Shown here: positions 17,231 through 41,517 of the stretch, in pieces
How the letters are laid out: every line of letters begins with the position of its first letter
Numbering within the stretch: position 1 is the stretch's first letter
Origin: an uncultured Bacteroidota bacterium
Lineage (GTDB): Bacteria > Bacteroidota > Bacteroidia > Bacteroidales > Bacteroidaceae
DNA: 41,517 nucleotides
Assembly: GCA_947168315.1 (NCBI GenBank)
Contig: CAMVLL010000009.1
Coordinates: forward strand, 1 to 41,517
Direction: 5' to 3'
Translations under genes and position numbers: made by a program
Notes under the pieces: model-generated
Database searches by the model: none
Told to the model about the DNA's origin: nothing
Seen by the model: only the letters and a program-made list of their open reading frames with translations

Positions 17231-18622
17231 TTATTTTTTCAGTTGAGATTCAATCTCAATCAGTTCTGCTTTAAAGGCTTTGTCGACAGAAACTTGATTT
17301 TCTACGCATTTACAAGCATGTAATACCGTCGCATGATCTTTTCCGCCAATAATCATACCAATCTTTGCGGTTGAGAAATCGGTATATTTCTTTGCAAGGA
17401 ACATGGCAATTTGACGTGCTTGAACATATTCTCTCTTTCTGCTCTTGTTATGAATGGAAGCTTCGTCCATATCATAATGTGTGCATACAACCTTCAGAAT
17501 ATCCTCAATAGTTATCTGCTTGTTTACGATATTTACAGCCTTCTTCACAATGTGTTGAGCCAAGCTCATGTCAATATCCCGTTTGAACAGGATCGATTGT
17601 GCCAGTAATGAATTGATGATACCTTCCAATTCGCGGACGCTTTCCTCAACGTTCTCAGCAATATAGTCGATGACTTCCTCTGGTATTACCAGACCATCGC
17701 GATGAACCTTGCTCCTTAGGATATTTCTTCTGAGTTCTGTATCAGGCTTGTTCAGTTCGGCAACCAAACCCCATTTAAAGCGGGTGAGAAGGCGTTCTTC
17801 CATACCTTGTAATACGGCAGGTGAGCGATCAGAAGTCATCACCAGTTGTTTGCCATTTTGATGCAAATGGTTGAAGATATAGAAGAACGTATTCTGGGTT
17901 TGTGTCTTGCCTGCGAACTCCTGAACATCATCAATAATCAGAACATCTATACTTTGATAGAAATTGATGAAATTATTGAAGTTGTTTGTTCTTACAGAAT
18001 CAGTATATTGAACTTGGAACAGGTGTGCTGAGACATATAGCACTCTTTTCTCAGGATATAATTCCTTAATCCTTGTTCCGATAGCGTTGACAAGGTGTGT
18101 TTTGCCGACGCCAGACGGACCATAGATGAATAACGGGTTGAAAGTTTTGGCTGGATGTTCTGCAACTGTTTCCGCAACCGCACGGGAGAACTCGTTACTT
18201 GTACCTTGAATAAAAGTATCAAAGTTATAATTCGGATTCAGTTGAGGATCCAGATCATGGAGTGGGTTAGGGGCCTCGTTTCCTCTGGTAATCGCTTTTG
18301 GCGTGACCACAGTAGAGCGGCTGCTTCCAGGAATGTCGACTGAAATACCATGTGTCTTGTCCGTTAATTCATGATACATCAATTCGGCGTTCTCACCTAT
18401 CTCTTTATAAAGGGTGGCACGCAATAGTTCCAGAAATTTATCTTCCAAGTATTCCCGGAAGAATGGACTTGGAACTCCAATAGTCAAGGCCTTACCATCG
18501 AACTTTAAAGGAACGATAGGTTTGAACCAAGTGTTATAAGCCGAATCGGTAATATTGTCTTTTATAAAATGAAGACAACGATTCCATAATTCGACATGAT
18601 CATATTCATTCATAATTGACAT
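17231..18622 (-). CDS. dnaA: Chromosomal replication initiator DnaA
   Basis: 463 residues with all four DnaA regions. The N-terminal DnaB/helicase-contact domain starts at [16 protein letters not shown] linker (about 93-130) follows. The AAA+ domain has Walker A GPSGVGKT (168-175) and Walker B VLIIDDVQ. The C-terminal helix-turn-helix has [17 protein letters not shown] and the signature [13 protein letters not shown]. It opens oriC and loads the helicase. The start may be ATG 18622 (MSIMNEY) or the fourth codon, ATG 18613. No consensus DnaA box is visible in the 311 bases upstream, so oriC is not proven here. No exact -7 element is seen. Confidence 0.96.
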
Positions 18623-28053: not shown

Positions 28054-28764
28054 ATGAGATTTGCTATAATATCTGCGGGAGAAGGATCCAGGTTATCCCA
28101 AGAAGGAGTTTTGTTACCCAAACCAATGGTTCAGCTGAACGGCTGTGCCATGATTGATCGTCTGATACAAATATTCGGACGCTGCGGCGCCTCCGAGATT
28201 GTCATCATTATTAATAATGAACAGCCTCTGACAAAGGCTCATCTATTGGAACTTCAAAAGGTTTCAACTGTTCCTATTCGGCTTATCATCAAGTCGACAC
28301 CAAGTTCTATGCACAGTTTCTACGAACTCAGCAAGTATCTGCATGGTGATAAATTCTGTCTGACGACAGTTGACACCATCTTTTTGGAATCAGAATTCAA
28401 AACTTACATCGATGCTTTCGAAAAATCCGATTTAGATGGGATGATGGCTGTAACTGATTTTATTGATGATGAGAAACCGTTGTATGTCGGAACAGATCAG
28501 GAGAAACGTATTACGGGATTTTATGATGAACGTCGTGATGATTCCCGATACATCTCTGGTGGTATCTATTGTTTGGCTCCTTCTGCCTTGGAAACATTGC
28601 AAAAATGTATGGATGAAGGCTTGTCGCGTATGCGTAATTTCCAACGTCAGTTGGTTGTCGATGGACGAAATCTGAAAGCATACCCATTTTCTAAGATTTT
28701 GGATGTGGATCATGCTTCGGACATACAGAAAGCAGAGGAATTCTTGTTAAATCAGCAAAAATAA
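28054..28764 (+). CDS. Nucleotidyltransferase of the sugar-1-P/inositol-P type
   Basis: 236 residues. The start at ATG 28054 begins MRFAIISAGEGSRL. The NTP-transferase signature is A8-GEGSRL with PKP at 22-24 (GxGxRL...PKP). Metal-binding candidates are D107 in TTVDTIF and D217-V-D219 near the end. It should join a nucleotide to a sugar- or polyol-phosphate. Because a CDP-alcohol phosphotransferase follows two genes on, and because archaeal inositol-1-phosphate cytidylyltransferases have the same fold and partner, CTP:inositol-phosphate cytidylyltransferase is the leading guess. Other sugar-phosphate substrates are possible. It starts one base after the pdxA-like stop. Confidence 0.85.
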   Translation: MRFAIISAGEGSRLSQEGVLLPKPMVQLNGCAMIDRLIQIFGRCGASEIVIIINNEQPLTKAHLLELQKVSTVPIRLIIKSTPSSMHSFYELSKYLHGDKFCLTTVDTIFLESEFKTYIDAFEKSDLDGMMAVTDFIDDEKPLYVGTDQEKRITGFYDERRDDSRYISGGIYCLAPSALETLQKCMDEGLSRMRNFQRQLVVDGRNLKAYPFSKILDVDHASDIQKAEEFLLNQQK

Positions 28765-28769
28765 TTCGA

Positions 28770-29624
28770 ATGAAAAAACTCAATGTGATAGGAATCAGTC
28801 GGGGATCACAGTATTCTCCAAATCTGATGAATAGTGATGCGGCTATTTTTAACCTTGTCACACGTGAGTTGCAGAAAAAAGGATGGCAGATAACGACTTG
28901 TCCTGAAGATCTCTTTGAGGAAAAAGAATGCCATGCTGATGTTATCTATACGATGGCCCGTGATAAACGGACGATAGAGCGTTTGCTTCAACTAGAGGAA
29001 CAGGGAACATTGGTGATAAATGCGGCAAAAGGTTTGGAAAATTGTGTCAGACGACCTCTCACCGAACTTTTTATCCAGCATCAAATCCCTTATCCGGAAA
29101 GTTTTATTTGGTCGACCGACCAATATTTTGATAAAGCTTTCTTCCCATGTTGGTTTAAGCGTGGAGACTCATCCGCCATTGTGAAAGAAGATGTATGCTT
29201 CGTTGAATCGAGAGAACAAGCAAACAGGTTGCTTGAACAGTTCAAGGAGCGTGGAATAAAAACAATTGTAGTCAATAAGCATTTGGAAGGTGATTTGGTT
29301 AAGTTCTATGGCGTACGACATGTCGGCTTTTTCGATTGGGTACACAGTCGGCCGGATACACATAGTAAGTTTGGACTTGAACAAATCAACGGAATGCCTG
29401 TTGGTTACGACTTTGATATAGAGAGTTTAAAAAAGTGGAGCGATGAGGCTGCAAAGGTATTAGGTATAACAGTTTACGGAGGTGATTGTGTAATATCAGC
29501 CGATGGCTCCTTTAAGTTTATAGATTTTAATGACTGGCCAAGTTTTTCCCGCTGCCGTGAGGAGGCAGGAAAGGCAATAGCGGAGAGCATCTGCTATTTG
29601 ACCGAAGAACATCTGAGAAAATGA
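28770..29624 (+). CDS. ATP-grasp family protein, inositol-phosphate kinase-like
   Basis: 284 residues. The C-terminal half has the ATP-grasp pattern: FPCWFKRGD near 125-133, a central strand ending VVNKHLEGDLVKFYGV (about 167-182), then GITVYGGDCVI and FKFIDFNDWPSF. The Mg-ligand triad D239, D252 and N254 is intact. The order (LG.(S/T)(L/V)(F/Y)G.D ... (V/I)D(I/F)N..P.(F/Y)) resembles both ITPK (inositol 1,3,4-trisphosphate 5/6-kinase) and RimK-type ligases. An inositol-phosphate kinase would fit the cluster; a peptide or amino-acid ligase is not excluded. Its ATG overlaps no gene, but the following gene overlaps its stop by four bases. Confidence 0.75.
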   Translation: MKKLNVIGISRGSQYSPNLMNSDAAIFNLVTRELQKKGWQITTCPEDLFEEKECHADVIYTMARDKRTIERLLQLEEQGTLVINAAKGLENCVRRPLTELFIQHQIPYPESFIWSTDQYFDKAFFPCWFKRGDSSAIVKEDVCFVESREQANRLLEQFKERGIKTIVVNKHLEGDLVKFYGVRHVGFFDWVHSRPDTHSKFGLEQINGMPVGYDFDIESLKKWSDEAAKVLGITVYGGDCVISADGSFKFIDFNDWPSFSRCREEAGKAIAESICYLTEEHLRK

Positions 29625-30574
29625 TAGAAGAATTTGAAAAAGGATTAAAAGCATCCTTTAAATCGAATGATACGGAAGAGTGGTTGGATATACATTTTAA
29701 TCGTCCAATCGGATATATATGGGCTTTGTTCTTTAAAAGACTTAAAGTACACCCGAATGTAGTGACAATCTTGTCGATTATCCTTGGCGTGGCGGCAGGT
29801 ATCATGTTTTACTATCCGGATTTGAAACATACTTTGTTGGGAATCCTCTTCCTCGTTTGGGCAAATCACTACGATAGCTGTGACGGACAGCTGGCTCGTA
29901 TGACAGGACAGAAGACTCGATGGGGTAGAATGTTGGATGGCTTCGCTGGTGATATCTGGTTCATCACAATCTATGTCGCTATCTGCCTTCGACTGATGAA
30001 TCAACCCATGCCATTCAATATCGGAAATGGTATGCATTGGGGCATTTTTATCTGGATTCTCGCTATTTTCTCAGGAACATATTGTCATAGTAAACAATGT
30101 ACGCTTGCCGACTACTATCGGAATATCCATTTATACTTCCTGAAAGGAAAGAATGGGAGTGAATTGGACAATTATAAGCAACAACGTGAACTTTTCAACA
30201 GTCTTCCATGGAAAGGAAACTTCTGGTGGAAGATTTTCCTCTATTTCTACGGAAATTATACCAGAAATCAGGAGAAGATGACTCCGAACTTCCAAAAGTT
30301 TTATGCCATGGTTCGTGAAAAGTACGGTGATGAGATACCTCAATCATTACGTGATGAGTTCCGTGCAGAGAGTCTTCCACTGATGAAGTACACCAATATA
30401 CTGACGTTCAACACCCGCGCAATCGCTTTGTACATCAGTTTGTTGATAAAAGAGCCCTGGCTCTATTTTATCTTCGAAATTGTGATCATGACGTCGTTGT
30501 TCTTGTACATGCGTCACCGTCATGAAGCAATGTCGGCAAAGTTTTATCAAAAATTGAAGAGTCGTGAAGAATAA
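29621..30574 (+). CDS. CDP-alcohol phosphotransferase family membrane protein
   Basis: 317 residues with several hydrophobic helices (about 48-65, 70-83, 108-125, 135-150, 265-295). The family motif DxxDGxxAR(x8)GxxxD is exact: D85-SC-D88-G89-QL-A92-R93, eight residues, then G102-RML-D106. The fourth aspartate, usually at DxxxD, reads G110 with D111 one place later. Enzymes of this family transfer a phosphate-linked alcohol between CMP and an acceptor, such as diacylglycerol or inositol. With the cytidylyltransferase upstream, the donor may be CDP-inositol and the product phosphatidylinositol or an inositol sphingolipid. The ATG overlaps the ATP-grasp stop by four bases. Confidence 0.88.
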   Translation: MIEEFEKGLKASFKSNDTEEWLDIHFNRPIGYIWALFFKRLKVHPNVVTILSIILGVAAGIMFYYPDLKHTLLGILFLVWANHYDSCDGQLARMTGQKTRWGRMLDGFAGDIWFITIYVAICLRLMNQPMPFNIGNGMHWGIFIWILAIFSGTYCHSKQCTLADYYRNIHLYFLKGKNGSELDNYKQQRELFNSLPWKGNFWWKIFLYFYGNYTRNQEKMTPNFQKFYAMVREKYGDEIPQSLRDEFRAESLPLMKYTNILTFNTRAIALYISLLIKEPWLYFIFEIVIMTSLFLYMRHRHEAMSAKFYQKLKSREE

Positions 30575-31592
30575 ATATCGAAATATCTTTTTGTTTTTTG
30601 GCATCGCTGCTATCGTTATCATGCTGTTGACATTCAACATGCAGTATGATGAACTATGGAGGAATCTTAAACGAGCAGGTAATTGGTTGCCAGCTATCAT
30701 CGGACTTTGGGCTTTTATCTATATGCTCAATGCTTTATCATGGTATATCATCATTCGAGATGGAAGAAAAGGCTCACCAATATCTTACTGGAAAGTTTAT
30801 AAGTTGACCATCACAGGGTTTGCGCTCAACTATGCGACTCCTGGCGGCTTGATGGGAGGAGAACCTTACCGTATCATGGAATTGACACCATATGTGGGCG
30901 CAAGTAAGGCCACTTCATCGGTGATACTCTATGTGATGATGCATATTTTCTCTCATATCTGCTTCTGGTTTGCTTCCATCTTCCTGTATATCTTTATGTA
31001 TTCCGTTGATTTCCTCGCTGGCTTCTTCTTCTTCATTGTTGGAGCCGTATTACTTCTGCTAATTTATTTCTTTATGCGAGGATATAGTAAGGGAATGGCT
31101 GTGAAAACACTGCGATTGCTGGGATATGTCCCTTTCGCCAAGAAGTGGGCAATACGTTTTTCAGAGGAAAAGAAAGAGACTTTACAAAATATCGACAACC
31201 AAATAGCTGAATTGCACAAACAACGAAAGTCAACGTTCTATGCTTCACTTGGCTTAGAGTTCTTTGCTAGAATAGTTGGCTGTTTGGAAATCTATTTTAT
31301 CCTGAATATATTGACACATAACGTAAGCTTCCCTAATTGTATCTTGATTATGGCATTTACTTCTTTGTTTGCCAATATCTTCTTTTTCTCACCGATGCAG
31401 TTGGGCGTTCGCGAAGGTGGTTTTGCTATCTCGGTTGACCGACTTTCTATTCCGGGTGCATACGGCTTATATACAGGATTGCTAACCAGAGTTCGTGAAC
31501 TGGTATGGATTATTATTGGTGTCGCATTGATGAAAGTGGGAACCAGTGTTCATCCAAAAGAAGAAAATAAAACAGATGAAAAAGATAAATGA
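30564..31592 (+). CDS. Flippase-like membrane protein (UPF0104 / LPG synthase TM)
   Basis: 342 residues with about seven to eight membrane helices, of the YbhN/AglD-like family (lysylphosphatidylglycerol synthase TM region). Typical segments are YATPGGLMGGEPYRI and MQLGVREGGF near the end of the membrane part. Some family members move lipids across membranes. The start is GTG at 30564, overlapping the upstream stop by 11 bases; the next Met (codon 19) would remove the first helix. In this cluster it could carry the lipid made by the CDP-alcohol enzyme to the outer face of the inner membrane. Confidence 0.82.
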   Translation: MKNKYRNIFLFFGIAAIVIMLLTFNMQYDELWRNLKRAGNWLPAIIGLWAFIYMLNALSWYIIIRDGRKGSPISYWKVYKLTITGFALNYATPGGLMGGEPYRIMELTPYVGASKATSSVILYVMMHIFSHICFWFASIFLYIFMYSVDFLAGFFFFIVGAVLLLLIYFFMRGYSKGMAVKTLRLLGYVPFAKKWAIRFSEEKKETLQNIDNQIAELHKQRKSTFYASLGLEFFARIVGCLEIYFILNILTHNVSFPNCILIMAFTSLFANIFFFSPMQLGVREGGFAISVDRLSIPGAYGLYTGLLTRVRELVWIIIGVALMKVGTSVHPKEENKTDEKDK

Positions 31593-32298
31593 TATAAAAG
31601 GTGTCATCTTCGATTATGGTGGCACAATTGATACCAATAGCCGACATTGGGCTGAAGTTTTGTGGAGCCAATATGTAAAACACTGTATTCCTGTGACTAA
31701 GGAGAGTTTTCGTGAGGCTTATGTCTTTGGAGAAAGGACATTGGCAAAGTATCCTTATGTACGCCCGGACCATAACTTTTACGATGTTCTCCTTTTCAAA
31801 TGCAAGTTGCAAATGGAATACTTGGCCTTGCACGAGTATTTGGAGATGGATGAACGGAAACTACAACACTATGCACTGTCGGTAGCAGAAAGTAGTTATT
31901 CGTATGTTCAAGATATCTTAAAAATAACTCGTCCTGTCGTAAAAGCTTTATCCGAAAAATATAAGTTAGTGCTAGTTTCCAATTTTTATGGAAACATTCA
32001 GACGATATTAAATGATTTCAAATTAAATACTTTTTTTGCCGATATCGTAGAATCGTCGGTTGTTGGCGTTCGTAAGCCTGATCCTGCCATATATCAGTTG
32101 GGTGTTGACGCGATGGGCTTCAGCGCTGATCAAGTTTTGGTTGTCGGTGACTCGTTCTCAAAGGATGTTGTTCCAGCCAAGAAGTGTGGATGTAAAGTCG
32201 TTTGGTTGAAAGGTGAAGGTTGGGGAGGTGAAGTGATTGATGAATCCTTACCCGATGAGATTATTACGAGTTTAGATCAATTATTAGATATTATTTAA
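31576..32298 (+). CDS. HAD-superfamily hydrolase
   Basis: 240 residues. HAD motif I is VIFDYGGTIDTN, where the second Asp of DxD is Gly, as in the DxG class that includes YihX (DLGN). Motif II is LVSNFYGN, motif III KPDPAIYQ with Lys, and motif IV VVGDSFSKDVVPAKK. It is likely a small-molecule phosphatase. In this operon a phospho-inositol or phospholipid-head phosphate is a reasonable substrate guess, but sequence does not show it. The start at 31576 overlaps the flippase-like gene by 17 bases; an alternative ATG at 31546 would overlap more. Confidence 0.85.
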   Translation: MKKINDIKGVIFDYGGTIDTNSRHWAEVLWSQYVKHCIPVTKESFREAYVFGERTLAKYPYVRPDHNFYDVLLFKCKLQMEYLALHEYLEMDERKLQHYALSVAESSYSYVQDILKITRPVVKALSEKYKLVLVSNFYGNIQTILNDFKLNTFFADIVESSVVGVRKPDPAIYQLGVDAMGFSADQVLVVGDSFSKDVVPAKKCGCKVVWLKGEGWGGEVIDESLPDEIITSLDQLLDII

Positions 32299-32306
32299 GT
32301 AAAGAG

Positions 32307-33518
32307 ATGAAAAAATATTCATTAGTCAAGAAGGAGTATTTAGTTCCTTTTGTCTTAGTGACAACGTTGTTTTTCCTTTGGGGATTTGCAAGAGCTATCT
32401 TGGATGTACTAAACAAGCATTTCCAGAATGAGTTAAGCATTTCGATTACTCAGTCGGCCTGGATCCAGGTTACGACTTATCTGGGATATTTCTTGATGGC
32501 CATTCCTGCAGGATTATATATTAATCGTAAAGGTTATCGTAAAGGTGTTGTATTAGGATTGATTCTGTTTGGTGCTGGTGCCTTACTTTTTATACCGGGC
32601 ACATATATGGAGACATACTATGCATTTTTGGTTTGTCTTTTTATCATCGGATGTGGTCTGACATTCTTGGAAACAGCAGCCAATCCTTATGTGACGGAGT
32701 TGGGAGTGCCTGAAACATCTACAAGTCGTCTGAATTTGTCGCAGTCGTTCAACGGACTGGGAAGTTTGTTTGCTACTTTCGTGGTTGGACAGTTCTTCTT
32801 TAATTCTGATGAAACTGGAAATGTGGTCGTACCTTATTCGATTCTGGGTGCGCTCGTCTTGTGTATCGCAGTTATTTTCTCACAAGTACCTTTGCCTGAG
32901 ATAAAACATGAAGAAGAAGATACATATTCTTCTACATCAAATGGGTGGAAGAATCTCAAAAGACTGTTTACTTCTCATAAATTATTTGTTTTCGGTTTGT
33001 TCTCTTTGTTGGCTTATGAGGTGGCAGAGATTTCTATAAACAGTTATTTCATCAATTTTGTAACTGGAGAAGGATGGATGAACGATAATCTCGCATCTGT
33101 CATTCTTACTTGTGCTTTGGCGTTCTTCATGGTCGGACGTTTTGCTGGAAGTTGGATTATGCAGAAGATCAGAGCGGAGAAAATGTTGATGATTTGTGCC
33201 GCTGGAACAGTGATATGTATGCTTTTGGTATTGATGAATCTCGGGAAAATCTCATTGGTAGCCTTGGTTGCCAACTATTTCTTTGAAGCGATTATGTTCC
33301 CAACGATATTCTCACTCGCTTTAGTGGGTGTGGGAAATCTTACAAAGAGTGCTTCTTCGTTGTTGATGATGACTCCTGTCGGAGGATGCGGTTTCTTGTT
33401 GATGGGAATAATAGCAGATTGTACCAATTTGGTGATTCCGTTCTTCATTCCATTGATAGGATATTCGATCATACTTGTTTATGCCTTAGTTCTGATGCGA
33501 AGATGGAAAGAAAGATGA
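32307..33518 (+). CDS. MFS sugar transporter (FucP-like)
   Basis: 403 residues with 12 predicted helices. It starts VPFVLVTTLFFLWGFARAILDVLNKHFQ and includes LTFLETAANPYVTELG, both hallmarks of the L-fucose:H+ symporter/glucose-galactose transporter subfamily. It imports a monosaccharide or polyol by proton symport. The substrate is not known; inositol would fit the operon. It is last in the nine-gene run, 8 nt after the HAD gene, and is followed by a strong bidirectional terminator. Confidence 0.9.
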   Translation: MKKYSLVKKEYLVPFVLVTTLFFLWGFARAILDVLNKHFQNELSISITQSAWIQVTTYLGYFLMAIPAGLYINRKGYRKGVVLGLILFGAGALLFIPGTYMETYYAFLVCLFIIGCGLTFLETAANPYVTELGVPETSTSRLNLSQSFNGLGSLFATFVVGQFFFNSDETGNVVVPYSILGALVLCIAVIFSQVPLPEIKHEEEDTYSSTSNGWKNLKRLFTSHKLFVFGLFSLLAYEVAEISINSYFINFVTGEGWMNDNLASVILTCALAFFMVGRFAGSWIMQKIRAEKMLMICAAGTVICMLLVLMNLGKISLVALVANYFFEAIMFPTIFSLALVGVGNLTKSASSLLMMTPVGGCGFLLMGIIADCTNLVIPFFIPLIGYSIILVYALVLMRRWKER

Positions 33519-33521
33519 TAT

Positions 33522-33560
33522 AATAAATAAGGTGTAGAAATTTTCTACACCTTATTTATT
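33522..33560. terminator. Bidirectional terminator, MFS / PfkB kinase
   Basis: 17-base arms (33522-33538 and 33544-33560, core AAGGTGTAGA / TCTACACCTT) around a five-base loop, A/T-rich ends, between convergent genes. Confidence 0.92.
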
Positions 33561-33581
33561 ATATATATGTTCACGAATGTG

Positions 33582-34478
33582 TTATAATCGTTCCGCTTTG
33601 CACTTACTTTCTTTAATGAGATTCCACACATCTTGTTCCGTCCCTTGGAACGGTCCTGAATTTTCTTGGTTTAGCGTGGACATAGCTGCAGCAAAACATC
33701 CGGCTTCTTCGTAAGAAGCACCTTTGTTTCTCATATATAGATAACCAGTAGCATATGTATCGCCACATCCTGTTGCGTCAACAATCTTCTGTGGTGGGTA
33801 TGCTGGAATCTTATATAACTGATCGTCTACATAAATTATTGAGCCAAGGCTTCCTAAAGTAACAAGCACTTCCTTCACTCCCCACTTTCCTAATTGTTTT
33901 GCTGCTTCAATAGGGTCGGAATATCCAGTCAAGACATCCATTTCGAACTCATTGACTTTGAGTATATCGATGTATTTCATCGCTTTTTTCTTTTCAGGCC
34001 AATCTACGGAATAGACTTTTTCTCCACGAACCTCACGAAGGTAACCTTGAACATCAACACTCAGAATACCTTTGCCTGATAAATATTTGATAACATCCAA
34101 AGAGAAGTCATCGCTTAGTAAGCTGCCTAGGTGAAAAATGCGTGATTCTACATCTTGAAGGTCCTCAATCTGGAAAGGATCGGCCTTTGCTAACACACGT
34201 TGCTTACGGTTATCCTGGTTTATACCATACGAATTTTCAAAATAAACAGTCCGCTTACTTGGTATAACTTTTACTTTAATACCTCTGGCACGGATATCTT
34301 CTACTGACTTCATCTCACTTTCTGCCAGAGAAGTGACTAATTCAAAATGATCAAAACTGTCCAGATGACTGATTCCATGCGCAAAATAAAATGCAGTACC
34401 GCCAGGTAAATATGTCACTGACTTCGGCGTGACAATCTTATCTAATGTTATATGACCTATGCAACAAATATCGTTCAT
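33582..34478 (-). CDS. PfkB-family kinase, possible inositol kinase
   Basis: 298 residues. It has the N-terminal CCIGHITLDKIV and LPGGTAFYF motifs (PfkB substrate-binding GG) and the C-terminal DATGCGDTYATGYLY, where D240 is the catalytic base and GCGD replaces the common GAGD anion hole. The stretch FENSYG...RVLAKADPF recalls the myo-inositol kinase branch (plant MIK, archaeal inositol kinases), which have a similar R-V-x-x-x-A/C-D-P stretch; this is from memory. I place the start at ATG 34478, because an ATG at 34502 lies inside the -7 element. It is convergent with the transporter/phosphotransferase operon and could supply inositol phosphate to it. Adenosine, ribose or another sugar as substrate is not excluded. 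Confidence 0.82.
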   Translation of the reverse strand: MNDICCIGHITLDKIVTPKSVTYLPGGTAFYFAHGISHLDSFDHFELVTSLAESEMKSVEDIRARGIKVKVIPSKRTVYFENSYGINQDNRKQRVLAKADPFQIEDLQDVESRIFHLGSLLSDDFSLDVIKYLSGKGILSVDVQGYLREVRGEKVYSVDWPEKKKAMKYIDILKVNEFEMDVLTGYSDPIEAAKQLGKWGVKEVLVTLGSLGSIIYVDDQLYKIPAYPPQKIVDATGCGDTYATGYLYMRNKGASYEEAGCFAAAMSTLNQENSGPFQGTEQDVWNLIKESKCKAERL

Positions 34479-34501
34479 TGTCTTTTTATATGAAAAGTCC
34501 A

Positions 34502-34509
34502 CAAAATTA
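34502..34509 (-). promoter_or_regulatory. -7 element of the PfkB kinase gene
   Basis: The minus strand reads TAATTTTG (matches TAnnTTTG) at 34509-34502. Its position rules out the ATG at 34502 and supports 34478. A CTTG at 34531-34528 may serve as the -33. Confidence 0.55.
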
Positions 34510-34611
34510 CAAAAAACTTTTGTTTAGCAAGATTTTATCCTAGACATTTCATCTTTTTTACATATTTACCTAAAAGTAAATGATATTTTAAGAATAAGAC
34601 CAACTAACTGA

Positions 34612-34672
34612 AATGACATATTGAACATAAAACACGAAAAATAAACTATAATTTGCTACAATATGTGTCATT
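34612..34672. repeat. Imperfect inverted repeat upstream of susC
   Basis: AATGACATATTG (34612-34623) and CAATATGTGTCATT (34659-34672) pair with a two-base bulge across a 35-base spacer. It is 54 bases before the susC -33 element. It may be an operator of the Sus locus or a site for the PfkB-side promoter. Confidence 0.55.
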
Positions 34673-34725
34673 CTGTAAAGTTAATAATGTGGGAATTTGT
34701 TAAAACTTTAATAAATTACTTTATT

Positions 34726-34759
34726 TTTGACAATTGAAAATGAAATTTGATTATATTTG
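34726..34759 (+). promoter_or_regulatory. Promoter of susC-susD
   Basis: TTTG (34726-34729) and TATATTTG (34752-34759), 22 nt apart. The -7 is an exact match. The leader to the ATG is about 95 nt and includes a small hairpin near CTTTATT/AATAAGG. Confidence 0.65.
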
Positions 34760-34860
34760 CAGTCACTTTTGCTAGAGGGTAAATTCAATTTTTTTGAGTG
34801 TTCTTTATTCTTGTAATAAGGTGTTATTGCATGTGAACAACTTAATTTTTATAATATAAT

Positions 34861-37800
34861 ATGAGAAAAGGTTTAATTAGCGTATTCGGTACAGTTCTTT
34901 TGAGCTTAATGTTGACTGTACCAATGCAAGGTAATGCAGCTGTAAACGGAATGGATAATATTTCCGCCGTCCAGCAGACTCGTACCATAAAAGGACACAT
35001 CGCTGATGATGCAGGTGAGCCTGTTATTGGTGCAAGTATTTTGGAAAAAGGAACTACCAACGGTACAATCACTGACCTCGATGGTAATTTCCAGTTAAAT
35101 GTTGGCAACGATGCTATTTTGGTAATCAGTTATATCGGTTATCAAACTCAGGAATTGGTCGCTACGGATAATATGAATATCGTTTTACATGAGGAAACTT
35201 CTGTATTGAACGAGGTCGTTGTAGTAGGTTACGGTAGTATGCGTCGTAAAGATGTAACAAGTGCTATCACCACCATTCAACGTGATGAATTGAATCAAGG
35301 TGTATTTTCTGATCCTGCTTCAATGTTGCAAGGTAAAGTTGCCGGTTTGACTATCACTTCTACAGGTGACCCGACTAGTACTGGTTCAATTACTCTTCGT
35401 GGTGCTTCTTCTTTGCGCCAAGGTGCAGCTATGGAACCATACTATGTAATCGATGGTATCCCTGGTGTTGACATTTCGATGGTAGCTCCTGACGATATTG
35501 AAAGTATTGACGTACTTCGTGATGCAACTGCAACAGCAATCTACGGATCAAAAGCTGCTAACGGTGTCATCATTATCACTACTAAGAGTGGTAAAGAAGG
35601 ACGTACAAGTGTTTCTTACAATGCATACGTAGCTATTGACAATGCATTGAAGACCTTGGACATGGCAACTGCTTCTCAACTTCGCTCTTCTGGTGAGTTG
35701 GTTGAAGACGAAGGTGCTAACACTGATTGGCAGAAGGAAGTTCTTCGTACAGGTTTCAGCCACAATCACAACTTGGCTATTAGCGGTGGTACACAGAAGA
35801 CGAAGTACAATGCTTCTATTAACTACATGAATCGCGACGGTGTTATTCGTGGTACTGATATGAACCGCGTAAATGCACGTGCGTTGGTTACAACTGATGT
35901 GTTGAAAGATCGTTTGTCTTTGTCAGTAGGTGTAAACGCTATGCAAAGCAAAGACCATAATGTACCAAGAGGTTTTGATGGTGCTTCAGTTTTGGATGCG
36001 ATGAACTATTTCTCACCGACAAATCCTGTTAGAAACGCTGACGGTAGTTGGTTCCGCAGCTATATTGGCTCACAGAACTACAACCCGATGGCTATGATTT
36101 ATGAAGACAATAACGATACAGTTACAAAACGTCTTCAGTTTATTGGCAAGGCTTCTTTAAAGATCGTTGACGGTTTGGTATGGAATGCTAACTATAGCTA
36201 TAATGCTCATCAGTATAATTACAGTTATTATAATAGTCAGAAGTCTCAACTGGTTGAGGGTTATGATGGAAAGGCATACCGTCAGACTCGTTCAGGTGAG
36301 GATAAGACTTTCGAAACTTATGCTAACTTCGACAAAACCTTTAACATGGCTCATCGCTTAGGTTTGATGGCAGGTTATTCATGGGAAGAAAGAATGAGTG
36401 ATGATGGCTTTGGCGTTGCTGTTTATGATTTCTTTGATGACTATCTCCGTTACAACAACATGGGATTTGCTCACCATATGAGCGACAAGGGTGGTATGAA
36501 TGCTGACGTTGATGGTGGTAATAAGACAACTATCCGCAACATTTCATTCTATGGTCGTTTGAATTATTCTTATAATGGTAAGTATATGTTGCAGGCAACT
36601 GTTCGTCGTGATGGTTCTTCTGTATTTGGTAAGAATCACCGTTGGGGTACTTTCCCGTCAGTCAGCGTTGCATGGAACATTGCTGAAGAGGACTTTATGA
36701 AGTCAAGTGTCTTCGATCAATTGAAGCTTCGTGCAGGTTACGGTATTAGTGGTAATGCTCTTGGCTTTGATGCATACACAGCTATTTCAACTTATGTGTT
36801 GGATAAAGGTGGTAGCTTTGATTACATCAACTCAAATGGTACTGTTTCTAAGTACTACAAGATTAATGTTGCAAAGAATGCTAACCCTGATTTGAAGTGG
36901 GAGAGCACGGGTATGTTGAATATCGGTCTTGACTTCGCATTGCTTCACAGTCGTCTGAGTGGTAGCATTGAGGTTTATCACAAGAAGACAAAGGATTTGA
37001 TTTGGGATTATCCTGTTTCAACAAATATCTATCCTGTTGGTTCGATGACTGCGAACGTAGGTAACATTACGAATACTGGTATTGAGTTCACTTTGAATGC
37101 TGTTCCTGTTCAAACTAATGACTTTACTTGGCAAAGTACTTTGAACTTATCTCACAACAAGAATAAAGTTGATAAATTGACCAACTCTACTTACAGTGTT
37201 CCTTATATTGATTGGGGTGAACCACATATCGCAGGTATTTCGGCAAATGGCGCTGTAGAACGTATCCTCGAAGGTGAGTCTTTAGGTACATTCTGGACTT
37301 ACGAATGGGCTGGTTATGACGGTGATGGTAACTCTTTGTTCTATGTACACGATGCAGAGACAGGAAAACGTACAGGTGAGACAACAACAGAACCTCAGGT
37401 TAAGGACAAAACAAAAGTTGGTTGTGCTATGCCTAAGTTAACTTACGGTTGGAACAACAACTTAACATACAAGAACTGGTCGTTGACAGCGTTCTTCCAA
37501 GGAATGTTAGGCAACAAGATTATGAATGCTACTCGAGCTCATTATAGCAGTAGTAGTTTGCTTTCTGGTGGAAAGAACGTATTGGCAGAAGCTCTTAACG
37601 ATTCTCACTTCAAGAGTGACCCACGTTATAATTATCCTTCTGACCGTTATTTGGAGAATGGTGATTTTCTCCGTCTGAAGACCTTGACAATAGGTTATAC
37701 ATTCAAGAATTTGAATGAATGGGCACAGAGTTTACAGGTTTATGCTACGGCAAACAACCTGCTGACACTTACTGGTTATAAAGGTTTGGACCCTGAAGTA

Positions 37801-37893
37801 TATCTTGGCGGTTTGCAACCGGGTTTGGATGTTCGCGAAACATTCTATCCTCAAACACGTTCATTTATGTTTGGCGTAAAGGTTAACTTCTAA
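34861..37893 (+). CDS. SusC-family TonB-dependent outer-membrane transporter
   Basis: 1010 residues. A signal peptide (about 1-27) is followed by a carboxypeptidase-D-like N-terminal domain (IKGHIADDAGEPVIGASILEKGTTNGTITDLDGNF), a TonB-box-like NEVVVVGYGSMRRKDVTSAI, the plug domain (MLQGKVAGLTITSTGDP; DDIESIDVLRDATATAIYGSKAANGVIIITTK, the SusC signature) and a 22-strand barrel ending in the aromatic F-G-V-K-V-N-F. It imports oligosaccharides with SusD as the lid. The substrate is probably a mannose-containing glycan, judging from the GH92 downstream. It leads a Sus-type operon. Confidence 0.96.
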   Translation: MRKGLISVFGTVLLSLMLTVPMQGNAAVNGMDNISAVQQTRTIKGHIADDAGEPVIGASILEKGTTNGTITDLDGNFQLNVGNDAILVISYIGYQTQELVATDNMNIVLHEETSVLNEVVVVGYGSMRRKDVTSAITTIQRDELNQGVFSDPASMLQGKVAGLTITSTGDPTSTGSITLRGASSLRQGAAMEPYYVIDGIPGVDISMVAPDDIESIDVLRDATATAIYGSKAANGVIIITTKSGKEGRTSVSYNAYVAIDNALKTLDMATASQLRSSGELVEDEGANTDWQKEVLRTGFSHNHNLAISGGTQKTKYNASINYMNRDGVIRGTDMNRVNARALVTTDVLKDRLSLSVGVNAMQSKDHNVPRGFDGASVLDAMNYFSPTNPVRNADGSWFRSYIGSQNYNPMAMIYEDNNDTVTKRLQFIGKASLKIVDGLVWNANYSYNAHQYNYSYYNSQKSQLVEGYDGKAYRQTRSGEDKTFETYANFDKTFNMAHRLGLMAGYSWEERMSDDGFGVAVYDFFDDYLRYNNMGFAHHMSDKGGMNADVDGGNKTTIRNISFYGRLNYSYNGKYMLQATVRRDGSSVFGKNHRWGTFPSVSVAWNIAEEDFMKSSVFDQLKLRAGYGISGNALGFDAYTAISTYVLDKGGSFDYINSNGTVSKYYKINVAKNANPDLKWESTGMLNIGLDFALLHSRLSGSIEVYHKKTKDLIWDYPVSTNIYPVGSMTANVGNITNTGIEFTLNAVPVQTNDFTWQSTLNLSHNKNKVDKLTNSTYSVPYIDWGEPHIAGISANGAVERILEGESLGTFWTYEWAGYDGDGNSLFYVHDAETGKRTGETTTEPQVKDKTKVGCAMPKLTYGWNNNLTYKNWSLTAFFQGMLGNKIMNATRAHYSSSSLLSGGKNVLAEALNDSHFKSDPRYNYPSDRYLENGDFLRLKTLTIGYTFKNLNEWAQSLQVYATANNLLTLTGYKGLDPEVYLGGLQPGLDVRETFYPQTRSFMFGVKVNF

Positions 37894-37897
37894 AATC

Positions 37898-37905
37898 AAA
37901 GGAGG
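37898..37905 (+). promoter_or_regulatory. Strong Shine-Dalgarno before susD
   Basis: AAAGGAGG ends 7 nt before the susD ATG, in a 19-nt gap after susC. Its strength suits high SusD output from the shared mRNA. Confidence 0.7.
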
Positions 37906-37912
37906 AATTGAA

Positions 37913-39601
37913 ATGAAAAAGAATATTAGATTATATCTCGCTACAGTAGTTTGTGCACTGGTCTCTTTCAGTTGTACAGATTTGGATGTTAACGTTGAAT
38001 CGCAATATACTTCTTATCCGATTTCACTACAAGCTGTTGAGGCTCAGATGGCGGATGTATATTTCCATTTGCGTGGAACATTAGGACGTCGTTATATGGA
38101 AGCTCAAGCTTTGGCTTCTGACGAATGGGTAGGTATCAGCTTCGATGGTGACTACTACGATAGTGGTACTTATGCTCACACTTGTTTGCATAACTTCATT
38201 GCTGATGACCCAAGTGTTGGTTGGTATGATGATGTTGCTGCTGGTATCACAAAGGCAAACCGTGTTATCATGACAATTGGTGGAGAAGAAAATCCTGCAT
38301 CTATTGCTCCGGCTCGTGCAATGCGTGCTTATTATCATTGGATCTTGATGGATAGCTATGGTGATGTACCTATTTTGGATGCTATTCCTGAGGAAGGTGA
38401 AGCTATCGAACGCAAACCGCGTGCAGAAGTTGCTCGTTGGATTGAAAGTGAGTTGTTAGAGATCATTCCTTTGCTGTCTGCAGAAAACAATGTCGCTACT
38501 TATGGTAAACCAAATAAGTGGATGGCTGAGGCTCTTCTCGTTAAGTTGTATATTAACTGGCCAGTTTATACTGCTAGCAATGTAACTGCTTACGATGCTA
38601 ATAACTACAGTAACGAACATTTGAACGATGTTGTTAAGTATTGTGATGAGATTATCAATAGTGGTCTCTTCGACATCGCTGCCGGTGCTAACGGTTATCG
38701 TTCAAAGTTCTTCCCTAACAATGGTTATCAGGTTAAGGATTTCATCTATGCAATGCCATACGATGCTGTTACAGCTCAAGGTTTCCAATACAGTCGTCCT
38801 CGTATCTGGCGTCAAGGTCGTAACGATGGTGAAGGCGGACCGGGTTATTTCGGTAGTGATATAGGTCAGTCAACTGGCGGTAACTTCTCAATGACTCCGG
38901 AAATGTCGGATTTGTTCACTCTTGAAGGTGATGATCGTAATGAAATCATCTTGGCTGGACAGATTTATATGTTCGACCCGACTACTTATGCTAAGACTTC
39001 TAATCCTTTTAAATATAAAGGTGAAGAAATTAAGTTGGAGAAGACTATTACATTGAAGGAAAAAGATGGTGATGGTAATTGGATTGACCCAACGATCTTG
39101 AATACTGGTAAGGATGTTCACGGATGGAGTCAAGGTTATAAAGCTGTGAAGTACTTCGTCATCGCTGAAGACTTCCGTAACGGTCGTAACCAGAGCAATG
39201 ACCTGCCGATTTTCCGTTATGCAGATATCCTTTTGACAAAGGCTGAAGCTATTGTTCGCGGTGCTGCTGCTACTAACGGACAGACAGCTCAGAGCTTGTT
39301 CAACATGATTCGTGAGTATGTTCACGCTCCATTGCTTGAGGGTACTCCGACCTTGAAGGACATTTTGGATGAGCGTGGCCGTGAGTTCTTCGATGAGAAC
39401 TGGCGTCGTAACGACATGATTCGCTTTGGTACATTCGAAAATGACTACGGATTCCATACTCGTCAATGGGCTGACTACCGCAATGGTGGTGCAATCACTA
39501 CTTTCCCAACAGCTCGTTTTGACAAGGAATGTCGTGTTTTCCCAATTCCAACGGGTACTTTGAACAATAATACCAACTGGAAACAAAACGCTGGTTATTA
39601 A
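37913..39601 (+). CDS. SusD/RagB-family glycan-binding lipoprotein
   Basis: 562 residues with a lipoprotein signal (ATVVCALVSFSC, lipidated C21). The SusD helical TPR-like scaffold is seen in ARAMRAYYHWILMDSYGDVPIL, KWMAEALLVKLYIN and DLPIFRYADILLTKAEAIVR. The C-terminal DILDERGREFFDENWRRNDMIRFGTF is a family hallmark. It sits on the cell surface and delivers glycans to SusC. It follows susC after 19 nt, with its own strong ribosome-binding site. Two hairpins separate it from the GH92 gene. Confidence 0.96.
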   Translation: MKKNIRLYLATVVCALVSFSCTDLDVNVESQYTSYPISLQAVEAQMADVYFHLRGTLGRRYMEAQALASDEWVGISFDGDYYDSGTYAHTCLHNFIADDPSVGWYDDVAAGITKANRVIMTIGGEENPASIAPARAMRAYYHWILMDSYGDVPILDAIPEEGEAIERKPRAEVARWIESELLEIIPLLSAENNVATYGKPNKWMAEALLVKLYINWPVYTASNVTAYDANNYSNEHLNDVVKYCDEIINSGLFDIAAGANGYRSKFFPNNGYQVKDFIYAMPYDAVTAQGFQYSRPRIWRQGRNDGEGGPGYFGSDIGQSTGGNFSMTPEMSDLFTLEGDDRNEIILAGQIYMFDPTTYAKTSNPFKYKGEEIKLEKTITLKEKDGDGNWIDPTILNTGKDVHGWSQGYKAVKYFVIAEDFRNGRNQSNDLPIFRYADILLTKAEAIVRGAAATNGQTAQSLFNMIREYVHAPLLEGTPTLKDILDERGREFFDENWRRNDMIRFGTFENDYGFHTRQWADYRNGGAITTFPTARFDKECRVFPIPTGTLNNNTNWKQNAGY

Positions 39602-39621
39602 TTTCCTGTAAAATAGGATAA

Positions 39622-39641
39622 ATACTCAAATTTTTGAGTAT
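39622..39641 (+). terminator. First hairpin after susD
   Basis: ATACTCAAA and TTTGAGTAT pair as a near-perfect palindrome with a tiny loop. It lies 20 nt after the stop and lacks a strong T tract. Confidence 0.45.
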
Positions 39642-39646
39642 CTTCG

Positions 39647-39689
39647 AGGCAGATTCTTTTATGGATAATAAAAGAATCTGTCTTTTTTT
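39647..39689 (+). terminator. Strong terminator or attenuator between susD and the GH92 gene
   Basis: About 16-bp stem (39647-39662 with 39668-39683, core CAGATTCTTTTAT / ATAAAAGAATCTG) with one wobble, then a run of seven Ts. It likely reduces transcription into the GH92 gene. Confidence 0.85.
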
Positions 39690-39715
39690 ATTTGTAATCA
39701 TTAAATACCATAAAT

Positions 39716-41517
39716 ATGAAACACTTTATTGCGAGATTGTCATTGTTGTTGTCGGTTTGTTTGATGTCTTGTCAACCTTCTTCCACAGAAAAGAAAGACT
39801 TGGTGGATTATGTGAATCCATATATCGGAAATATCAGTCATATGTTGGTTCCAACATTTGCTACGGTGCAGTTACCTAACAGCATGCTTCGCGTTTATCC
39901 GGAACGTGGCGACTATACCACCGAGAAAGTAAATGGTTTGCCGGTTATCGTAACCAATCATCGTGAACGTTCTGCGTTTAATATCAGTCCGTATCAAGGA
40001 AATGACCCGAAACCAGTCGTTTCTCTGAACTACGATCAGGAACATCTGACTCCATATTACTATGATATCGAACTGGATGACAACCAAATGCAAGCAAGAT
40101 ATGCATTATCTCATCAGAGTGCTATTTATGAATTGAATTTCTATCGTGCCGATGCCCCAGTCTTCGTCATTTTTAATTCCCGTAATGGTGAAATGCGTGT
40201 TCATGATGGAGCAATCAGTGGTTTTCAACGGCTTTCGAAAGAGACATCTGTTTATCTGTATGTCGAAATGGAACAGCAACCGGTTGCGATCGGTCCATTG
40301 AAAGGTAAATTCTTGGTTTCCACATTGGATTCTGCAGAAGGTTATAATGCTTGTATCGCCGCTCGTTTCGATAATGATGTAAAACAAGTTCGACTTCGCT
40401 ATGGTGTTTCTTTTATCAGTGAGGAGCAGGCAAAGAAAAACCTTTATCGGGAGCAATCTGATTATGATGTCGATGCGTTGGCGTTCAAAGGCAGACAGAT
40501 TTGGAATGAAACACTTTCTCAACTTAAAGTTGAAGGTGGAACAGAGGATGAGAAGACGGTATTCTACACTTCTTACTATCGTACGTTCGAACGTCCGGTA
40601 TGTATGAGCGAAGATGGACACTATTTCAGCGCCTTCGATGGTAAGGTTCATGAGGATGGCGGTATTCCTTTCTATACGGATGATTGGATTTGGGATACTT
40701 ATCGGGCAGCACATCCGTTACGTGCTATGACACAATCTGAGAAGGAGGAGGCCATCATCGAGTCGTATTTACGGATGGCTGAACAAATGGGTACTGAATG
40801 GTTGCCTACCTTCCCTGAAACAACAGGTGATTCACGACGGATGAACAGCAATCATGGTATAGCTATGTTGGCCGATGCTTTATATAAAGGATTGAAAGTA
40901 GATGGCGAACGGGCATTTGAATACTCTCGCAAGGCTTTGGAAGAGAAAACGTTGGCTCCGTGGTCGGGCAATCCAGCTGGTTGGATTGATGCGTTCTATA
41001 AAGAGCATGGTTATATTCCTGCTTTGAAAGAAGGAGAGAAGGAAACTGACCCTAATGTCTCTGGTTTTGAGAAGCGACAACCCGTTGCTGTCACTCTGGG
41101 AACTTCGTACGATGAGTGGTGTCTCTCTCGAATCGCTTCGTTTATCGGGAAAAAAGAAGATGCGGCTCATTATCTGAGTCTCTCGTATAACTATCGGAAC
41201 TTGTTTAATGAAGAAACAGGATTCTTCCATCCGAAAGATGCGGAAGGACATTTCTTGGAACCGTTCGATTATCGTTTCTCTGGTGGAATCGGTGCGAGAG
41301 ATGCTTATGACGAGAACAATGGTTGGACTTATCGTTGGGATGTTCAGCATAACTTTGCCGACTTAGTTCAACTGATGGGGGGACCGGAACAATTTATTGC
41401 CAATCTGGATCAGACATTTACTGAGCCGATGGGAAGGGGAAAGCGTGAATTCTATACCCAATTGCCCGATCAGACAGGAAATATTGGACAGTTTACGATG
41501 GCGAACGAGCCTTCTTT
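39716..41517 (+). CDS. GH92 alpha-mannosidase-family lipoprotein (partial)
   Basis: The frame is open from ATG 39716 to the window end, giving 600 residues without a stop; the C-terminus lies outside. The lipoprotein signal is SLLLSVCLMSC (C19). After it come LVDYVNPYIGNISHMLVPTFATVQLPNSM, the N-terminal domain of GH92, and the (alpha/alpha)6 part with FYTDDWIWDTYRAAHPLRAM (about 318-337), GTEWLPTFPETTGD and the end-of-window ANEPS. Family enzymes are Ca-dependent exo-alpha-mannosidases acting on yeast mannan or N-glycans. Linkage preference cannot be told here: the usual GHGHTFPGA-like start is replaced by SHMLVPTFA, so this is a divergent branch. It follows susD after a terminator, with no clear promoter of its own. 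Confidence 0.88.
   Translation, partial: MKHFIARLSLLLSVCLMSCQPSSTEKKDLVDYVNPYIGNISHMLVPTFATVQLPNSMLRVYPERGDYTTEKVNGLPVIVTNHRERSAFNISPYQGNDPKPVVSLNYDQEHLTPYYYDIELDDNQMQARYALSHQSAIYELNFYRADAPVFVIFNSRNGEMRVHDGAISGFQRLSKETSVYLYVEMEQQPVAIGPLKGKFLVSTLDSAEGYNACIAARFDNDVKQVRLRYGVSFISEEQAKKNLYREQSDYDVDALAFKGRQIWNETLSQLKVEGGTEDEKTVFYTSYYRTFERPVCMSEDGHYFSAFDGKVHEDGGIPFYTDDWIWDTYRAAHPLRAMTQSEKEEAIIESYLRMAEQMGTEWLPTFPETTGDSRRMNSNHGIAMLADALYKGLKVDGERAFEYSRKALEEKTLAPWSGNPAGWIDAFYKEHGYIPALKEGEKETDPNVSGFEKRQPVAVTLGTSYDEWCLSRIASFIGKKEDAAHYLSLSYNYRNLFNEETGFFHPKDAEGHFLEPFDYRFSGGIGARDAYDENNGWTYRWDVQHNFADLVQLMGGPEQFIANLDQTFTEPMGRGKREFYTQLPDQTGNIGQFTMANEPS

What the first reader, a model, noticed from the sequence alone, without database searches (positions are those of the whole stretch)
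28054..34478. Possible inositol-lipid operon using a CDP-inositol route
Six packed plus-strand genes (nucleotidyltransferase, ATP-grasp, CDP-alcohol phosphotransferase, UPF0104 flippase-like, HAD, MFS) are followed by a convergent PfkB kinase resembling inositol kinases. They can be read as import, phosphorylation, cytidylylation and transfer of phospho-inositol to a lipid, then dephosphorylation or flipping. This would make phosphatidylinositol directly, unlike the B. thetaiotaomicron route through phosphatidylinositol phosphate. A second route without that intermediate, common in Prevotella, has been proposed in the literature as I recall it. No inositol-phosphate synthase is seen, so inositol would have to be imported or made elsewhere. 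Seen: families and order. Inferred: the substrate.
Basis: partly seen in the sequence, partly recalled or inferred. Interest (0 to 1): 0.85.

Follow-up and report, generated by a model that had tools for sequence, protein, structure and literature searches.

The report
Inositol-lipid operon fed by inositol salvage
A gut-type bacterium carries a known but untested gene set for making inositol lipids, has lost the enzyme that makes inositol phosphate, and appears to import and phosphorylate inositol from its surroundings instead.

Summary
The seven genes are real. The window is one whole contig of a Phocaeicola genome. The first five genes are the putative "alternative inositol-lipid cluster" that Heaver et al. 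2022 described in P. vulgatus and left unproven, so the CDP-inositol idea is already in print. New here: (1) myo-inositol-phosphate synthase (MIPS) is missing; one loss covers the window and three relatives, including cultured P. oris and P. abscessus. (2) The convergent PfkB kinase is closest to the inositol kinase TM0415 and keeps its inositol-binding residues, but has an ATP-type donor site. (3) In 199 family genomes the MFS and PfkB genes occur together and almost only with inositol-lipid enzymes of either chemistry. Of 162 such genomes 17 lack MIPS; 16 of these 17 have PfkB, against 64 of 145 with MIPS (p=6e-5; 0 of 200,000 genus-stratified shuffles reach it). MFS+PfkB thus looks like an inositol salvage module that can replace MIPS. 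(4) The CDP-alcohol transferase has its last catalytic Asp displaced by one residue in 36 of 36 sequences; direct transfer of phosphoinositol to a lipid is unproven. The roles of the ATP-grasp and HAD proteins stay open. No enzyme activity was tested.

The parts
28054..28764 (+). Nucleotidyltransferase (proposed inositol-phosphate cytidylyltransferase)
   Evidence: PF00483 3.7e-12. All NCBIfam matches are below their cut-offs; the archaeal IPCT/DIPPS model NF041135 (40.8 bits) covers residues 3-234. Single-sequence PDB search: 4jd0 6.4e-7 over 2-225, third of three below 1e-6. Profile search: mannose-1-P guanylyltransferase and glucose-1-P cytidylyltransferase score above 4jd0. Fused to the ATP-grasp protein in 5 of 5 long frames fetched.
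28770..29624 (+). ATP-grasp protein, role unknown
29621..30574 (+). CDP-alcohol phosphotransferase with displaced last catalytic Asp (signature D85..D111 at 29873-29953)
   Evidence: PF01066 5e-14. Profile against PDB: AF2299 (4o6m) 1.5e-10 first, then PIP-synthase chimeras 3.4e-5. Canonical signature 0 of 36, shifted form 36 of 36; 8 of 8 PIPS loci and the other CDP-AP of the own genome (L001) are canonical.
30564..31592 (+). UPF0104 / LPG_synthase_TM membrane protein (possible lipid flippase)
   Evidence: PF03706 3.2e-30. Fused with HAD in two loci, L148 and L152. PMC9246714 notes a BT_1521 homologue annotated lysylphosphatidylglycerol synthase near both kinds of cluster.
31576..32298 (+). 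HAD hydrolase, role unknown
   Evidence: PF00702 3.5e-15. Motif I is D-[YF]-G-[GA]-T: Gly two residues after the nucleophile in 34 of 34 sequences.
32307..33518 (+). FucP-type MFS symporter (proposed inositol importer)
   Evidence: PF07690 1.1e-26; TIGR00885 fucP 272.6 bits, cut-off 280.4; best PDB match E. coli FucP 3o7q 3.5e-55. Found at E<=1e-110 in 71 of 199 family genomes, 69 of them with PfkB.
33582..34478 (-). PfkB kinase (proposed ATP-dependent inositol kinase)
   Evidence: Best PDB match TM0415 over residues 5-279: 2.1e-31 alone, 2.7e-45 as profile, next different protein 1e-21. D13, N82, Q144, R148 and D240 (TM0415 D11, N78, Q141, R145, D234) invariant in 22 sequences. TM0415 R229 and R232 are A235 and C238 here.
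34479..34860 (.). Gap in which MIPS stands in relatives; followed here by SusC
   Evidence: MIPS lies beside PfkB in the 17 of 22 PfkB+NTP loci examined that have it. No remnant by tblastn.

Best explanation
The locus is the alternative inositol-lipid cluster of Bacteroidota in a form that has lost de novo inositol-phosphate synthesis and is fed by salvage. Proposed mechanism: the FucP-type symporter brings free inositol into the cell; the convergent PfkB kinase phosphorylates it with ATP to an inositol monophosphate; the nucleotidyltransferase joins that with CTP to CDP-inositol; the CDP-alcohol phosphotransferase passes phosphoinositol to a lipid alcohol (diacylglycerol or dihydroceramide); the UPF0104 protein may move the lipid; the HAD and ATP-grasp proteins act in steps not yet defined. 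Shown here: gene families and order, absence of MIPS, linkage of MFS+PfkB to inositol-lipid enzymes and to MIPS loss across genomes, conserved inositol-contacting residues. Inferred: every substrate, the direction of transport and every reaction.
For: Gene order and families. P. vulgatus, which has this locus plus MIPS, makes PI-DHC although it lacks BT_1522/23/25 homologues (PMC9246714). Genus, 61 genomes: 45 have NTP or PIPS; 9 of 45 lack MIPS and all 9 have PfkB; 5 of 45 lack PfkB and all 5 have MIPS, one as a fragment. Family, 199 genomes: 17 of 162 lipid-positive genomes lack MIPS; PfkB in 16 of 17 against 64 of 145, Fisher p 5.8e-5; within-genus shuffles 9.0 expected, 0 of 200,000 reach 16. 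PfkB genomes are lipid-positive in 80 of 81; MFS genomes carry PfkB in 69 of 71. The pair goes with both NTP- and PIPS-type genomes, whose shared input by known biochemistry of the PIPS route is inositol phosphate. About 9 changes of MIPS state on a PfkB tree of 54 genomes. TM0415-type acceptor residues invariant.
Against: 64 of 145 MIPS-positive lipid genomes also have PfkB, so the kinase is not only a substitute. G107 has NTP but neither MIPS nor PfkB; G186 lacks MIPS and the MFS; 12 of 81 PfkB genomes lack the MFS. The MFS is close to fucose permease. TM0415 makes Ins(1)P and has a 12 mM Km for inositol, and its authors doubt that inositol is its natural acceptor, while MIPS by general knowledge makes 1D-Ins(3)P; the isomer made here is unknown. 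The nucleotidyltransferase is not closest to IPCT in the profile search. The transferase lacks Asp at the canonical D4 place. No enzyme was tested. Genomes are related, and genus strata remove only part of that. G132 counts as lipid-positive through an NTP gene without the other cluster genes beside it.
Confidence: 0.65

Rival explanations
1. The MFS and PfkB genes are an ordinary uptake and kinase pair for fucose or another sugar that happens to sit beside the lipid cluster; inositol phosphate in MIPS-less species comes from elsewhere.
For: MFS is 272.6 bits to TIGR00885 fucP (cut-off 280.4) and its only PDB matches are E. coli FucP. In many Prevotella-like and Bacteroides genomes PfkB stands apart from the MFS and among unrelated genes.
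Against: Of 81 PfkB genomes 80 have NTP or PIPS, MFS goes with PfkB in 69 of 71 even where the two lie apart, and both are enriched where MIPS is lost. PfkB has no close tie to known sugar kinases and keeps the inositol contacts.
Confidence: 0.15
2. The transferase joins CDP-inositol to inositol phosphate, as DIPP synthase does, and HAD dephosphorylates the product: the cluster would make a soluble di-inositol phosphate or a part of a surface glycan, not a lipid.
For: Closest solved relative is AF2299, an enzyme said not to process lipids; helices compatible with six TM segments, no extra C-terminal ones; an IPCT-like partner and a phosphatase-like HAD.
Against: P. vulgatus and P. veroralis make PI-DHC with no other candidate genes found by Heaver et al.; a UPF0104 lipid-type membrane protein is part of the cluster. 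The transferase carries an extra helical stretch at about 176-260 of unknown use.
Confidence: 0.1
3. The ATP-grasp protein is an inositol-phosphate kinase and the route runs through a doubly phosphorylated inositol, a PIP-like lipid, and dephosphorylation by HAD, so that a PIP-type intermediate exists after all.
Confidence: 0.15
4. MIPS is only missing from the assembly.
For: G000 is 89% complete.
Against: The place next to PfkB is sequenced through into SusC; three clade mates also give no match: P. oris (listed 95% complete), P. abscessus (listed 85%), RUG12482 (listed 81%).
Confidence: 0.05

Closest known systems
Alternative inositol-lipid cluster of Phocaeicola (Bacteroides) vulgatus, BVU_RS13095/13105/13115 (Heaver et al. 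2022, PMC9246714)
   Same: Same genes in the same order: NTP, ATP-grasp, CDP-AP, UPF0104, HAD, MFS, PfkB in P. vulgatus.
   Different: MIPS follows PfkB in P. vulgatus and is absent here. The terms transporter, ATP-grasp and PfkB do not occur in that paper's main text, and kinase once, in a reference title.
B. thetaiotaomicron cluster BT_1522-1526
   Same: MIPS-dependent inositol lipids; a BT_1521-type membrane protein near both clusters (PMC9246714, sections 6 and 10).
   Different: PIP synthase and phosphatase instead of nucleotidyltransferase and the CDP-AP found here; G000 has no match to NF052561.
TM0415, PPi-dependent inositol 1-kinase of Thermotoga maritima (PMC5931981, parts 1-3 of 6 read)
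   Same: Full-length similarity; inositol contacts D11, N78, Q141, R145 and catalytic D234 kept.
   Different: ATP-type donor site (ATGCGD instead of RXGRGD); S89 is Gln, as in their homolog 7, whose product is not Ins(1)P.
IPCT and DIPP synthase of hyperthermophiles (4jd0, 2xme, 4mnd; AF2299)
   Same: Same pairing of a cytidylyltransferase with a CDP-AP; AF2299 is the best solved match of the CDP-AP.
   Different: Separate genes; the fusion seen here is nucleotidyltransferase with ATP-grasp; D4 displaced in the CDP-AP.
CpgD of Caulobacter (PMC12275187, passages)
   Same: IPCT-like cytidylyltransferase serving a bacterial sphingolipid headgroup.
   Different: Uses phosphoglycerate; a warning that substrate cannot be read from homology in this family.

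Membership tests
Alternative inositol-lipid cluster (Heaver 2022) | NTP transferase, CDP-alcohol transferase and HAD in one cluster | tested here: met
   Same order and homologous to the P. vulgatus ATCC 8482 locus.
Alternative inositol-lipid cluster (Heaver 2022) | MIPS in the vicinity | tested here: not met
   No MIPS in G000, none in the window. The paper names exceptions where MIPS is not clustered, e.g. P. copri.
Alternative inositol-lipid cluster (Heaver 2022) | Production of inositol lipids | not testable with these tools
   Needs lipid mass spectrometry.
CDP-alcohol phosphotransferases (class I) | Signature DxxDGxxAR(x8)GxxxDxxxD | tested here: not met
   0 of 36; all 36 have Gly at D4 and Asp (one Asn) one residue later; controls 8 of 8 PIPS loci and L001 canonical. 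PF01066 is met at 53.4 bits, cut-off 22.
Inositol-1-phosphate cytidylyltransferase (IPCT) | Conserved active-site Arg, Lys and Asp | tested here: inconclusive
   Window R13, K23 and D107 are invariant in 22 sequences and align with Arg, Lys and Asp of 4jd0. PMC12275187 names R16, K26 and D112; the Asp number could not be matched. These residues are shared by relatives with other substrates.
Inositol-1-phosphate cytidylyltransferase (IPCT) | CTP and inositol phosphate as substrates | not testable with these tools
   Needs an assay.
TM0415-type inositol kinases | Inositol-contacting residues D11, N78, Q141, R145 and catalytic D234 | tested here: met
   D13, N82, Q144, R148, D240, invariant in 22.
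PPi-dependent ribokinase-family enzymes | K171, F221, R229, R232, M266 (RXGRGD motif) | tested here: not met
   K174 is kept; the others are Y227, A235, C238, Q271 by the alignment (residues).
ITPK-type inositol-phosphate kinases (ATP-grasp protein) | Closest to ITPKs in sequence profile and fold | tested here: inconclusive
FucP fucose symporters (TIGR00885) | Score over the curated cut-off | tested here: not met
   272.6 bits, cut-off 280.4.

The most novel reading that the evidence does not exclude
MFS+PfkB is an undescribed inositol salvage module of Bacteroidota that feeds both known kinds of inositol-lipid synthesis and stands in where MIPS has been lost, several times independently, so that whole lineages (including cultured P. 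oris and P. abscessus) depend on host, dietary or microbial inositol for their inositol lipids; and their phosphoinositol transferase works with a relocated catalytic aspartate.
Probability: 0.55. Interest if true: 0.75.

Novelty: new variant of a known kind. Interest (0 to 1): 0.6.

Why it matters
In B. [quoted passage not shown] If a dedicated uptake and kinase pair exists in relatives, inositol becomes a nutritional link between host diet and bacterial membranes, and dependence on it can be predicted from three genes (MIPS, PfkB, MFS). MIPS-less cultured species also offer a clean test of the unproven CDP-inositol route.

Tried and rejected
PPi-dependence of the kinase: considered because TM0415 uses PPi; rejected on the donor-site residues. 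Filing the ATP-grasp protein as an ITPK: not accepted, since RimK-type ligases match the fold better. A MIPS remnant behind PfkB: only noise by tblastn. A PI-PLC source of inositol: PI-PLC-X in 8 of 61 genus genomes, none of G000, G001, G022, G044; its excess in MIPS-less lipid genomes (4 of 9 against 4 of 52, p 0.013) was looked at only after seeing L102. Testing B. thetaiotaomicron itself: no held genome could be named as that species; G205, whose contig length I recall as that of B. ovatus, has PfkB without the MFS. A Foldseek search of either model could not be run; only the ATP-grasp model got the second-look search. Print: searches (openly licensed PMC text only) listed no paper on a kinase or transporter feeding Bacteroidota inositol lipids; only the papers named in this report were opened. 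PMC13114119 (P. vulgatus Tn-seq) has no match to 'inositol' in its main text. PMC10191378 and PMC12482443 (passages) repeat the Heaver proposal without naming a salvage kinase.
Full report
What is there. Seven genes fill 28054-34478, six on the plus strand with gaps of at most 8 bases or overlaps of up to 17, and PfkB convergent. Families were confirmed by Pfam and NCBIfam. The window is a whole contig (C9) of a 2.57 Mb genome listed as 89% complete.

Which organism. G060 of the same genus has a contig of 5,163,189 bases, and the scan of named genomes gives Phocaeicola vulgatus ATCC 8482, NC_009614.1, with that length and the same PfkB position. So the genus is Phocaeicola.

The cluster is known. 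Heaver et al. (PMC9246714; sections 6 and 10 read; passages) describe an alternative cluster in B. vulgatus with NTP transferase, CDP-alcohol transferase and HAD hydrolase near MIPS, propose CDP-inositol by analogy to hyperthermophiles, show that B. vulgatus and P. veroralis make PI-DHC without homologues of BT_1522/23/25, and state that the functions are not confirmed. In G060 the order is NTP, ATP-grasp, CDP-AP, UPF0104, HAD, MFS, PfkB (convergent), MIPS.

MIPS is gone. PF07994 finds MIPS in 37 of 61 genus genomes and not in G000. In the window the place after PfkB holds SusC, SusD and a GH92 gene that runs off the contig; no MIPS remnant is found. A tree of six proteins of this region from 29 genomes puts G000, G044, G022 and G001 together with support 1.0, all without MIPS, with G023, which has it, as the next branch (support 0.96; G016 lacked two and G031 one of the six proteins). 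One loss explains the four.

The salvage pair in the genus. NTP was found in 37 of 61 genomes, BT_1523-like PIP synthase (PIPS) in 10 (none over its curated cut-off), PfkB in 41, MIPS in 37. NTP or PIPS: 45. Of these, 9 lack MIPS (five with NTP, four with PIPS), and all 9 have PfkB; 5 lack PfkB and all 5 have MIPS, one of them as a fragment (G053). Of the 16 genomes with neither lipid gene, one (G042, PfkB and MIPS on a 4.7 kb contig) has both. I fetched the 3' end of the NTP cluster of 22 of the 32 genomes that have NTP and PfkB: the MFS follows HAD in 22 of 22. It is absent in 3 of the 5 PfkB-less clusters; the other two stretches stop at a contig end. The MFS was found in the fetched stretches of all 9 MIPS-less lipid genomes, near PfkB except in G040, where the two lie on different contigs. 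Of the 22 loci, 17 have MIPS, each beside PfkB.

The salvage pair in the family. In 199 genomes (G000 plus genomes drawn evenly at 95% completeness or more): PfkB 81, MIPS 147, PIPS 50 (27 over its cut-off), NTP 119. Lipid-positive (NTP or PIPS): 162. MIPS is absent in 17; PfkB is present in 16 of the 17 and in 64 of the 145 with MIPS (Fisher p 5.8e-5). Shuffling within genera gives 9.0 expected against 16 observed, reached in 0 of 200,000; for the MFS (69 genomes at E<=1e-120) 15 observed, 8.6 expected, p 8.5e-5. PfkB genomes are lipid-positive in 80 of 81; the MFS (E<=1e-110) is in 71 genomes, 69 with PfkB, and 12 of the 81 PfkB genomes lack it. On a PfkB tree of 54 genomes, chosen partly because they lack MIPS, the MIPS state changes 9 times by parsimony. 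Exceptions: G107 (NTP cluster at 30-47% identity, no MIPS, no PfkB) and G186 (PfkB, no MIPS, no MFS). G132 counts through an NTP gene without the other cluster genes beside it; without it the count is 15 of 16.

The kinase. TM0415 is the best solved relative across residues 5-279 of 298, far above the next protein in the profile search (2.7e-45 against 1e-21). Nagata et al. (PMC5931981, parts 1-3 of 6 read) showed that TM0415 makes Ins(1)P from inositol and PPi, with a Km of 12 mM for inositol, and they doubt that inositol is its natural acceptor. The window protein keeps the four inositol contacts and the catalytic Asp, but has Ala and Cys at R229 and R232; that paper gives a small residue at the second place for ATP-dependent members. 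Ser89 is Gln, as in their homolog 7, whose product is not Ins(1)P. The product isomer is open, and it matters, since by general knowledge MIPS makes 1D-myo-inositol 3-phosphate.

The lipid steps. The nucleotidyltransferase is IPCT-like but not uniquely so. CpgD, whose top structural match was T. maritima IPCT, uses phosphoglycerate (PMC12275187, passages). The transferase's best solved relative is AF2299. Its signature differs from the canonical one: the last Asp is displaced by one residue in all 36 sequences examined (Asn in one), while 8 of 8 PIPS loci and the other CDP-AP of the own genome are canonical. In M. tuberculosis PIP synthase the D4 mutant D93N showed no detectable activity (PMC4634129, passages). 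The AF2 model (pLDDT 91.8) has helices compatible with six TM segments and a helical insert at about 176-260; hydropathy alone marks five stretches; no TM predictor was run. The same paper says that CDP-APs with lipid acceptors typically have three or four more TM helices at the C terminus. This counts against the simple Kennedy-type picture or marks another way of doing it. In 12 of 119 genomes the NTP frame is at least 500 aa long; the 5 that I fetched are all NTP fused to ATP-grasp. UPF0104 and HAD are fused in two loci. The ATP-grasp fold is RimK-like with inositol-phosphate kinases close behind.

Verdict. A known putative pathway, here in a MIPS-less form with a salvage module that I did not find described. 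The salvage reading is well supported by comparison; the chemistry of the lipid steps is not settled.

Noticed in passing
L102:7914-10331 (G029, MIPS-less, PIPS type): Beside PfkB lies a protein with PI-PLC-X (26.4 bits, cut-off 23.1), metallophosphoesterase and PA14 domains, followed by a SusC-like gene: possibly a way to harvest inositol from phosphatidylinositol.
   Followed up: partly
window 29873-29953 (CDP-AP signature): Last catalytic Asp displaced by one residue in all 36 sequences of this family (Asn in one), canonical in 8 of 8 PIPS loci.
   Followed up: partly
L139, L140, L141, L142, L143: Nucleotidyltransferase and ATP-grasp protein fused in one frame.
   Followed up: partly
window 34861-41515: SusC, SusD and a GH92 gene open at the contig end follow PfkB; the same three follow it in RUG12482, where MIPS stands in other relatives.
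   Followed up: partly
L181:11018-12244, L194:11010-12284, L216:10971-12182: In Parabacteroides and Dysgonomonas-like genomes a different MFS protein lies next to PfkB on the opposite strand: perhaps an unrelated importer for the same job.
   Followed up: no
L086:4442-5635: A mannonate dehydratase gene (UxuA) lies between HAD and MIPS in a genome without PfkB; a frame of similar size is there in L087.
   Followed up: no
window 31576-32298: HAD motif I has Gly two residues after the nucleophile in 34 of 34 sequences, unlike the usual DxD.
   Followed up: no
window 17231-18622: dnaA lies on this contig.
   Followed up: no
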